A DNA stretch of 58,343 bases from NCBI GenBank assembly GCA_021769035.1, contig JAETTP010000009.1, positions 1 to 58,343 of the forward strand. Reading direction: 5' to 3'. Of the stretch, positions 14,840 through 31,975 are shown piece by piece (the first letter of the stretch is position 1; every line of letters begins with the position of its first letter). Source of the DNA: Bacillota bacterium. Its GTDB lineage: Bacteria > Bacillota > Dehalobacteriia > UBA4068 > UBA4997. A program made the position numbers and the translations under genes. The notes under the pieces were generated by a model. That model saw nothing but the letters and a program-made list of their open reading frames with translations. It searched no databases and had not been told where the DNA came from.

Positions 14840-14887
14840 ATTTTTATCCTTTTTTCCCTATTTTAATGGTGACTTTAGGTTTCAGAT

Positions 14888-15010
14888 GTGGTATAATGTG
14901 AGCAAAGGCGATTGCGACGCTTTCAAAGCGGAAGCAGAGCCCATTGCGAACAAATACCACAGTGCAATTTGTTGTGATAAGGTGAAGTAACCTTTTTTCT
15001 GTGGTATAAT
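14888..15010 (+). repeat. Structured promoter-containing repeat, single unit (copy C)
   Basis: This is a 113-bp unit bounded by two TGTGGTATAAT-type boxes (14888-14897 and 15001-15010). The first TATAAT has a possible -35 (GTGACT) 17 bp upstream. Inside are a hairpin CGCTTT/AAAGCG, the arm ATACCACAG that is complementary to the CTGTGGTAT of the terminal box, and a hairpin AAGGT-gaagta-ACCTT followed by T6. Long blocks are identical to the reverse complement of 31848-31975, including TATAATGTGAGCAAAGGCGA. The terminal TATAAT points at the FtsE-like gene 77 bp downstream. Confidence 0.8.
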
Positions 15011-15086
15011 ATCATTATAGCATTTTTGGCAGGCAGTGTCCAGTGGCAACACAATTTTTATATTAAAAAATAAGGAGTGGCGGCTT

Positions 15087-31609: not shown

Positions 31610-31649
31610 AAATTCACTTTCCTTTCATTATATATATGTATTTTCAGAC

Positions 31650-31678
31650 AAAATAAAAGGGCCTGTGGCAGCCCTTTA
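31650..31678 (-). terminator. Riboswitch-controlled terminator upstream of queD
   Basis: On the minus strand AAAGGGC (from 31677) pairs with GCCCTTT across an 8-nt loop and is followed by TTATTTT. It lies between the aptamer and the queD start, as for transcriptional attenuation. Confidence 0.8.
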
Positions 31679-31712
31679 GGTGTTTTGTTTAACGACAGGG
31701 GCTGCGACTGTC
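31656..31712 (-). promoter_or_regulatory. PreQ1-I-type riboswitch of the que operon
   Basis: On the minus strand GACAG, TCGCAGCCC, CTGTC and then GTTAAACAAAACA form an H-type pseudoknot-like arrangement. P1 is GACAG/CTGTC. The loop TCGCAG and the A-rich tail closely match the T. tengcongensis preQ1 aptamer as I remember it. GCAGCCC in the loop is fully complementary to GGGCTGC at the base of the terminator, giving an antiterminator. The expected effect is that preQ1 switches the operon off. The tail has four extra bases compared with the known aptamer. Confidence 0.8.
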
Positions 31713-31730
31713 AGCAGATATTATTATTTT

Positions 31731-31975
31731 CTCACATTATACCATAGAAATAACGTTATTTTTCTAATTTCACAGGTTACACTATGGTATTTGTGACTTC
31801 GTCAGACTACAGTTCAATCTGCGCTTTAAGCTTGATTTCACTGAGTACTCACATTATACCATAGAAACAAGATTATTTCATCTGATTTTACAAATTGCAC
31901 TATGGTATTTGTTCGCAATGGGCTCTGCCATCGCCCTTTGGGCTTGGCACTCGCCTTTGCTCACATTATACCATA
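31731..31975 (-). repeat. Tandem structured promoter-containing repeats (copies A and B)
   Basis: CTCACATTATACCATA occurs at 31731, 31848 and 31960, giving two units of 117 and 112 bp. CACTATGGTATTTGT occurs at 31780 and 31898. Read on the minus strand each unit starts and ends with TATGGTATAATGTGAG. The first (31960) has TTGCTT 17 bp upstream as a -35. The last box (31731-31743) is the apparent promoter of the riboswitch and queD. Unit B shares long identical blocks with the unit at 14888-15010. Together with the riboswitch region it fills the gene-free stretch 31610-31996. Confidence 0.85.

What the first reader, a model, noticed from the sequence alone, without database searches (positions are those of the whole stretch)
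14888..15010. A structured, covarying repeat that carries promoters: copy upstream of the FtsE-like gene
This unit and the two tandem units at 31731-31975 share the boundary box TGGTATAATGTGAG (the terminal box here ends ATATC instead), the block GCAAAGGCGA, and an ACAAATACCA-[C/T]-AG-TG arm. Where sequences differ, pairing is kept. The terminal box CTGTGGTAT matches ATACCACAG here, but CTATGGTAT matches ATACCATAG in the other copies. The first hairpin is CGCTTT/AAAGCG here and GCCC/GGGC in copy B. The last hairpin is AAGGT-gaagta-ACCTT here and AGAT-gaaata-ATCT in B. Such compensatory change across three copies argues for selection on structure, not just recent duplication. Each unit could be a promoter, a short RNA and a weak terminator, with the next box as a second promoter.
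Basis: seen in the sequence. Interest (0 to 1): 0.82.

Follow-up and report, generated by a model that had tools for sequence, protein, structure and literature searches.

The report
Mobile hairpin repeat inserting into promoters
This is one copy of a roughly 112-letter mobile DNA repeat, found so far only in a few gut Peptococcaceae, that inserts inside a gene's promoter at the -10 box, folds into a conserved two-hairpin shape and ends with a fresh copy of that box, so a promoter-like sequence remains in front of the gene.

Summary
The repeat is real, and it is not just a duplication in this window. The unit at 14898-15010 and the two at 31736-31964 belong to a family with about 34 blastn hits in this genome. 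Relatives occur in three other species of the genus and nowhere else found. All 12 wobble cells fit folding of the gene-sense strand (12 G-U against 0 A-C).

Seven well-matched empty sites and a few weaker ones in sister species show it inserted at or beside the TATAAT of extended -10 promoters. Its own 3' end, CTRTGGTATAAT, re-creates that box. Every testable array (28 of 28) lies upstream of a co-oriented gene. Empty sites carry TGn before the hexamer in 9 of 10 cases, against 28% of ordinary promoter-like sites. An internal strand, ATACCAYAG, pairs with the box. Mixed-type tandem arrays fit insertion into an earlier copy's box.

The 5' hairpin (GTGA...GAAC) is shared with other repeat families there. 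No mobilising enzyme was found. "Promoter-carrying" stands as inference; "short RNA plus terminator" is unproven.

The parts
14869..14897 (+). Native host promoter that received the insertion: -35-like GTGACT, 17-bp spacer, extended -10 ATGTGGTATAAT (TATAAT at 14892-14897)
   Evidence: Promoter scan; the orthologous empty site in G006 has ATGTAGTATAAT|ATCATTATAGC
14898..15010 (+). The element: one 113-nt unit, GTGAGC...CTGTGGTATAAT
   Evidence: Model R1 hit, 112.5 bits; ends set by the empty site, ambiguous by the repeated TATAAT
14898..14951 (+). 5' hairpin module GTGA...GAAC, with tandem GA/GA mismatches, P1, P2 and terminal hairpin CGCTTT/AAAGCG
   Evidence: Covariation in A1; same module in other repeat families
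14954..14962 (+). Internal strand ATACCACAG, able to pair with the box at the element's 3' end; nearly complementary to the left (target) box as well
   Evidence: P5 columns 72-80 with 120-128: 99.7% paired; at the variable pair UA 20, CG 13, UG 3, CA 0
14979..14994 (+). Small hairpin AAGGT/ACCTT inside the P5 loop (weakly conserved)
   Evidence: Helix 5: 78.5% paired
14999..15010 (+). 3' end of the element, CTGTGGTATAAT: re-created extended -10 box in front of the ABC-ATPase gene
   Evidence: Sequence; 27 of 28 arrays are followed by a co-oriented ORF, the other by a tRNA gene
15014..15042 (-). Divergent promoter-like site TGGACA-17-TATAAT reading left; a transcript from it would now cross the element antisense
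   Evidence: Promoter scan
31853..31964 (-). Second copy, type A, first unit of a tandem pair
   Evidence: R1 113.1 bits
31736..31852 (-). Third copy, type B 5' hairpin, second unit of the tandem pair; its last box faces a PTPS (QueD-like) gene
   Evidence: R1 81.2 bits; Pfam PTPS
31965..31975 (-). Target-derived box TATGGTATAAT upstream of the tandem pair
   Evidence: Empty orthologue in G006: CTGTGTTATAAT, followed by the same leader

Best explanation
A small non-autonomous mobile element. It inserts at the -10 hexamer of extended -10 promoters (TRTGnTATAAT), in the direction of transcription. Because its own 3' end is CTRTGGTATAAT, insertion leaves an extended -10 box on both sides: the host's original promoter upstream and a re-created box in front of the gene. 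That makes insertion into promoters tolerable. It also leaves a target for the next copy, which builds mixed tandem arrays with a period of about 112 nt. The mobile form is most likely single-stranded nucleic acid of the gene-sense strand, folded into a 5' hairpin (GTGA...GAAC) and a 3' hairpin in which an internal strand (ATACCAYAG) pairs with the box at the element's own end. The same strand can pair almost as well with the target box, so it may act as a guide, much as guide sequences do in IS200/IS605 elements. Shown: mobility, insertion site, structure, strand polarity, target preference. Inferred: working promoter, guide role, ssDNA (rather than RNA) form, and an enzyme acting in trans.
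For: Mobility: 34 blastn hits in this genome and copies in G001, G006 and G007; joined flanks matched along most or all of their length at seven empty sites, plus a shorter match across the joint at an eighth, in both directions between species. Site: filled TATAAT|GTGAR...CTRTGGTATAAT|flank against empty TATAAT|flank. Structure: 28 pairs, 91.9% of cells paired, 121 double-changed cells against 44 shuffled; sliding by 1-3 columns drops pairing to 32-52%. Polarity: 12 G-U cells at 8 pairs, 0 A-C. Target preference: TGn in 9 of 10 empty sites against 37 of 131 native promoter-like sites, p = 1.8e-4. Orientation: 28 of 28 arrays lie upstream of a co-oriented gene. Mixed-type tandem arrays. IS608 precedent for base-pairing target choice and one-sided insertion 3' of a short motif: PMC5934647.
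Against: No enzyme was found. Y1 transposase is absent from G000, G001 and G006; reverse transcriptase and IS110 do not track the carriers, and no shared tyrosine recombinase was seen in an incomplete comparison. Position n of the target is G in only half of the empty sites, so guide pairing would often carry a mismatch. Two insertions duplicate 25-38 bp of their own upstream flank, which a simple precise insertion does not explain. Repeated TATAAT makes the exact ends ambiguous, so a 6-bp target duplication cannot be told from insertion beside TATAAT.
Confidence: 0.68

Rival explanations
1. A structured RNA element selected for gene regulation: a promoter-proximal leader whose folding (P5 against an alternative pairing with the upstream box) controls the downstream gene, spread by ordinary duplication.
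For: Always upstream of a co-oriented gene; strong covariation and gene-strand polarity; two alternative pairings of the same strand are possible.
Against: Downstream genes are unrelated (ABC ATPase, PTPS, tRNA and others). Sites are mostly present in one species and empty in its sister. The fold includes bases upstream of the expected start site. The same 5' hairpin lies after terminators and stop codons in sister families.
Confidence: 0.12
2. An RNA-mediated (retro) element: a transcript of a tandem unit is copied back into TRTGnTATAAT sites by a reverse transcriptase, like a bacterial SINE; sister families sit after terminators, as class C group II introns do.
For: RNA-like folding of the sense strand with tandem GA motifs; insertion of sister families right after terminators; duplicated flank in two insertions suggests template switching.
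Against: RVT_1 is absent from G006 and G007, which carry copies, and present in the non-carriers G002 and G004.
Confidence: 0.12
3. Site-specific recombination of folded single-stranded cassettes by a tyrosine recombinase, as in integrons: a circular unit integrates at box-like sites through a TATAAT crossover.
For: Array form box-unit-box-unit-box; structure conserved more than sequence; recombination between short identical cores would give exactly these junctions.
Against: No GTTRRRY core. Among the recombinase proteins compared, the only one in G006 has no close relative in the other carriers (that comparison was incomplete, as several proteins were cut short).
Confidence: 0.05
4. Only local duplication of promoter-containing DNA, with chance pairing.
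For: Tandem copies within one array are sometimes nearly identical.
Against: Dispersed copies with clean empty sites; covariation far above controls.
Confidence: 0.01

Closest known systems
REP/BIME repeats moved by TnpA-REP (RAYT)
   Same: Hairpin preceded by a conserved tetranucleotide, conserved stem mismatches, one strand recognised, tandem groups, mostly between genes (PMC8266576).
   Different: GTGA rather than GTAG; about 112 nt with a second, box-pairing hairpin; targeted to -10 boxes; no Y1 transposase in G000, G001 or G006.
IS200/IS605 (IS608, ISDra2) and their non-autonomous derivatives
   Same: No terminal inverted repeats, subterminal hairpins, oriented insertion 3' of a short motif kept in the left flank, motif recognised by base pairing with the element (PMC5934647).
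   Different: No tnpA found; motif is about 11 nt and is a promoter element; right end carries the same motif as the target; the 5' hairpin starts at nucleotide 1.
MITEs such as Correia elements and RUP
   Same: Small, non-autonomous, structured when transcribed, promoter-bearing in the Correia case (PMC10969869, PMC2229807).
   Different: No terminal inverted repeats, no TA duplication; the promoter is the insertion target itself and is regenerated.
BOX elements of Streptococcus pneumoniae
   Same: Modular structured repeats with shared and swapped modules and tandem inner parts (PMC3049150).
   Different: No sequence comparison with BOX was made; BOX is not described in the passages read as sitting in -10 boxes; module order and ends differ.
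IS110 bridge RNA / seekRNA systems
   Same: Structured RNA-like module that could pair with target DNA; a promoter forms at the unit-unit junction (general knowledge).
   Different: IS110 transposase found above cut-off only in G001.

Membership tests
IS200/IS605 derivative | Y1 (HUH) transposase available in the genome | tested here: not met
   PF01797: none in G000, G001 or G006; one fragment in G007. Draft assemblies, so a collapsed copy is not fully excluded.
IS200/IS605 derivative | Oriented insertion 3' of a fixed motif, no terminal inverted repeats | tested here: met
   Empty and filled sites; ends GTGAR and TATAAT are not inverted repeats
IS200/IS605 derivative | Guide sequence pairing with left and right cleavage sites | tested here: inconclusive
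   ATACCAYAG pairs with the right end and covaries; pairing with the target is plausible but not demonstrated
REP/BIME | GTAG (or GGAG) tetranucleotide before the hairpin and an associated RAYT | tested here: not met
   Tetranucleotide is GTGA (ATGA in some); no Y1 in G000, G001 or G006
MITE | Terminal inverted repeats and a DDE-type target duplication | tested here: not met
   No terminal inverted repeat; the repeated hexamer TATAAT is the target motif itself
Known Rfam family | Score above gathering, or a credible weak match | tested here: not met
   Only two tRNAs in the window; nothing credible on the repeats at E up to 5
Group II intron / retroelement | Reverse transcriptase tracking the carriers | tested here: not met
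   Absent in G006 and G007, present in non-carriers G002 and G004
IS110 | DEDD transposase tracking the carriers | tested here: not met
   Absent in G000, G006 and G007
Integron cassette (attC) | Integron integrase and GTTRRRY core | tested here: inconclusive
   Core not present at the junctions; tyrosine recombinases exist, but an integron-specific model was not run

The most novel reading that the evidence does not exclude
A mobile element that has made the bacterial extended -10 promoter its insertion site, chosen by base pairing between an internal guide and the box, moved by an enzyme of an unrecognised kind. Sister families sharing its 5' hairpin use terminators and gene ends instead.
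Probability: 0.3. Interest if true: 0.82.

Novelty: new variant of a known kind. Interest (0 to 1): 0.62.

Why it matters
Small dispersed repeats in bacteria are common. In the papers I could search I found none described as inserting precisely into -10 boxes and handing a new -10 box back. If that is right, it shows how a genomic parasite can live in the most sensitive part of a gene's control region without killing expression, and how promoters and leaders can be rewired in steps of about 112 bp. Target choice by pairing would make it a natural case of guided insertion at promoters, and the missing enzyme is a concrete thing to look for. The shared 5' hairpin, combined with tails suited to promoters, terminators or gene ends, would be a clear case of modular evolution of mobile repeats.

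Tried and rejected
Known RNA family: no Rfam match at gathering or at low threshold.

Y1 transposase, reverse transcriptase and IS110 transposase as the mover: none present in all carriers. Tyrosine recombinases: only one in G006, and no close relative in the other carriers among the proteins compared (my automatic reading of those proteins was incomplete for loci on the other strand).

Autonomous copy bounded by the same ends: not found. The lone boxes at C57, C98 and C100 have no unit beside them. Contig ends inside repeats were read and show more repeats; I did not annotate every gene there.

Wider spread: no match in the 34 genomes of the class outside the genus that were searched with the model. 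An exact-pattern scan of 84,980 species genomes gave only Peptococcaceae bins plus two unrelated chance hits. No family-1 match in viral contigs, plasmids or phages.

Short peptide reading of some units: frames differ between types, so dropped as coincidence. Pairing ACAAAT/ATTTGT inside the arm: breaks in many copies, so dropped. Long target duplication as the general rule: seen in two insertions only.

Full report
WHAT IS THERE. The unit upstream of the ABC-ATPase (FtsE-like) gene runs 14898-15010 on the + strand. Two more units lie in tandem on the - strand at 31853-31964 and 31736-31852. The 171-bp query has 34 matches in the 2.23-Mb genome. Among 40 relatives only G001, G006 and G007, all of the same genus, had matches. 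A covariance model (R1) found full-length copies in the same four genomes and in none of the other 39 genomes of the class that were searched. An exact-pattern scan of 84,980 species genomes returned two uncultured Peptococcaceae bins and two single hits that do not look like the element. IMG/VR, plasmids and phages gave none.

STRUCTURE. I aligned 36 units (A1). A unit begins GTGAR and ends CTRTGGTATAAT. It has two domains. The 5' domain is a hairpin closed by GU...AC with tandem GA/GA, then P1, a second GA/GA, P2 and a terminal stem. The 3' domain is a 9-bp stem, P5, between an internal ATACCAYAG and the terminal CTRTGGTAT, enclosing a small weak hairpin.

Several 5' sequence types (for example GCAAAGGC, TACTCAGT, ACATCGGC, ATACACAGC, ATATCGGT) keep the same pairing. 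Counted on A1, 91.9% of cells pair, 16 of 28 pairs have double changes, and there are 121 double-changed cells (shuffled mean 44). Sliding the partner by 1 to 3 columns drops pairing to 32-52%. These counts include related sequences and the structure was partly read from the same sequences, so the shuffle figures are not p-values. The size of the gap to the slid controls makes the structure safe all the same.

Across 21 confident pairs there are 12 G-U and no A-C cells, at 8 different pairs. This says that the strand with the sense of the promoter and gene is the one that folds. It does not say whether as RNA or as single-stranded DNA. Single-sequence folds agree: for eight units the sense strand folds with z from -2.7 to -5.1, better than the other strand in each case.

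IT IS MOBILE, AND IT SITS IN -10 BOXES. I joined the left flank (up to the first TATAAT) to the right flank (after the last TATAAT) of the arrays and searched the genus. Seven arrays gave matches covering most or all of the joined sequence in a sister species, and an eighth gave a shorter match crossing the joint. The alignments show, for this site, filled ATGTGGTATAAT[GTGAGC...CTGTGGTATAAT]ATCATTATAGC and empty ATGTAGTATAATATCATTATAGC (G006). The 31.7-kb tandem pair is empty in G006 as well. The traffic goes both ways: some sites are filled in G006 and empty in G000, or filled in G001 and empty in G007, or the reverse. A few further, weaker alignments are compatible with empty sites.

Because TATAAT lies on both sides, insertion beside TATAAT and a 6-bp target duplication cannot be told apart. 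Deletion at a filled ancestor cannot be formally excluded for each site. The reciprocal pattern, the many types and the lack of remnants at most sites favour insertion.

TARGET. The 29 host-side boxes read T-R-T-G-n-TATAAT, but they were found with a pattern that favours this. The fair test uses the empty sites: 9 of 10 have TG before n, against 37 of 131 ordinary promoter-like sites in the same DNA (p = 1.8e-4), and 7 of 10 have TRTG against 20 of 131 (p = 3.7e-4). I read the ten empty-site sequences by eye, and two of them come from weaker alignments. The preference matches what the internal ATACCAYAG could pair with, except that n is G in only half of the sites.

CONTEXT. In 27 of 28 testable arrays an open reading frame starts within 300 nt of the last box on the same strand. 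The other array stands before a tRNA gene (the tRNA sequence is visible). Downstream genes are unrelated. In this window they are an ABC ATPase with a Peptidase_C39-like gene diverging, and a PTPS (QueD-like) gene. The first box keeps the host's -35 region; the later boxes mostly do not, and would have to work as extended -10 promoters. The promoter scan flags the host box and a diverging promoter, and no terminator inside the unit. No expression data exist here, so promoter activity is inference from consensus.

ARRAYS. Arrays hold one to three units, often of different 5' types (for example B-A-A or A-B). Several contigs end inside units. Mixed arrays are what insertion into an existing copy's box would give; nearly identical neighbours in some arrays suggest duplication as well.

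SISTER FAMILIES. The 5' hairpin GTGA...GAAC, with the same GA/GA places, also begins other repeat families in the same four genomes. Some lie straight after terminators, followed by a long hairpin such as CAACCAGCCGCGCCCTTTAGGGTAGCGGCTGGTTG. Others lie after gene ends, followed by TCCAGCCGGCGCAGCCGGTTGGA. One lies in a viral contig beside a tail-sheath-like gene. G1-C is replaced by A1-T in several of them, which supports the pair at the very first nucleotide. That nucleotide is about six bases upstream of where RNA polymerase should start. I take this as a hint that the selected fold is not just the transcript from the element's own left box. The promoter-targeting family is therefore one branch of a modular group.

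HOW IT MAY MOVE. The anatomy resembles IS200/IS605 and REP systems: no terminal inverted repeats, hairpins near the ends, one strand, orientation fixed by a short motif left in the flank, and a strand inside the element complementary to that motif (PMC5934647, PMC8266576). Membership fails on the enzyme: no Y1 transposase in G000, G001 or G006. Reverse transcriptase and IS110 do not fit the carriers either, and no shared tyrosine recombinase was seen, though that comparison was incomplete. So I propose 'works like a guided single-strand element' at moderate confidence and leave the mover open. Two insertions in G006 contain a 25-38 bp copy of their own upstream flank inside the 3' domain (z = 5.0 and 3.5, rank 1 of 23), which may be a clue to a copying step.

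VERDICT.

Noticed in passing
L194, L185, L186, L178, L189, L193, L210, L213 (G001, G007 and others): Related repeat families start with the same GTGA...GAAC hairpin but carry other 3' hairpins; they lie after terminators or stop codons, often at the same place in two or three species.
   Followed up: partly
L212, L202, L193, L246, L211, L247: In several sister-family copies the three bases left of GTGA are complementary to the three bases right of GAAC (TTA/TAA, TAG/CTA, TAA/TTA, TTT/AAA, TGT/ACA, TAT/ATA), so the stem extends into the flank. Not explained.
   Followed up: no
L107 (G006:C34:35178-35290) and L040 (G006:C4:33637): These two insertions carry a 25-38 bp copy of their own upstream flank (including the -35 region) inside the unit's 3' part.
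   Followed up: partly
window 31640-31735 (-): Between the last box and the PTPS (QueD-like) gene lies a leader, conserved in G006 (CTGACAGTCGCAGCCCCTGTC..TAAACAAAACA..CTAA) and followed by a terminator-like hairpin; it may be a preQ1-type leader, but Rfam gave no match.
   Followed up: partly
L253 3263-3321: A viral contig (IMGVR_UViG_3300006217_000361) carries a sister-family hairpin between its tail-sheath-like gene and the next gene, so phages of this host may carry the repeats.
   Followed up: partly
G006:C34:66680 (L044): A copy lacking the whole 5' hairpin, as if deleted between the two GTGAAC repeats that bound it.
   Followed up: no
G000 contigs C6, C21, C27, C71, C86, C100: Contigs end inside these repeats; the arrays break the assembly, so copy number is a lower bound.
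   Followed up: no
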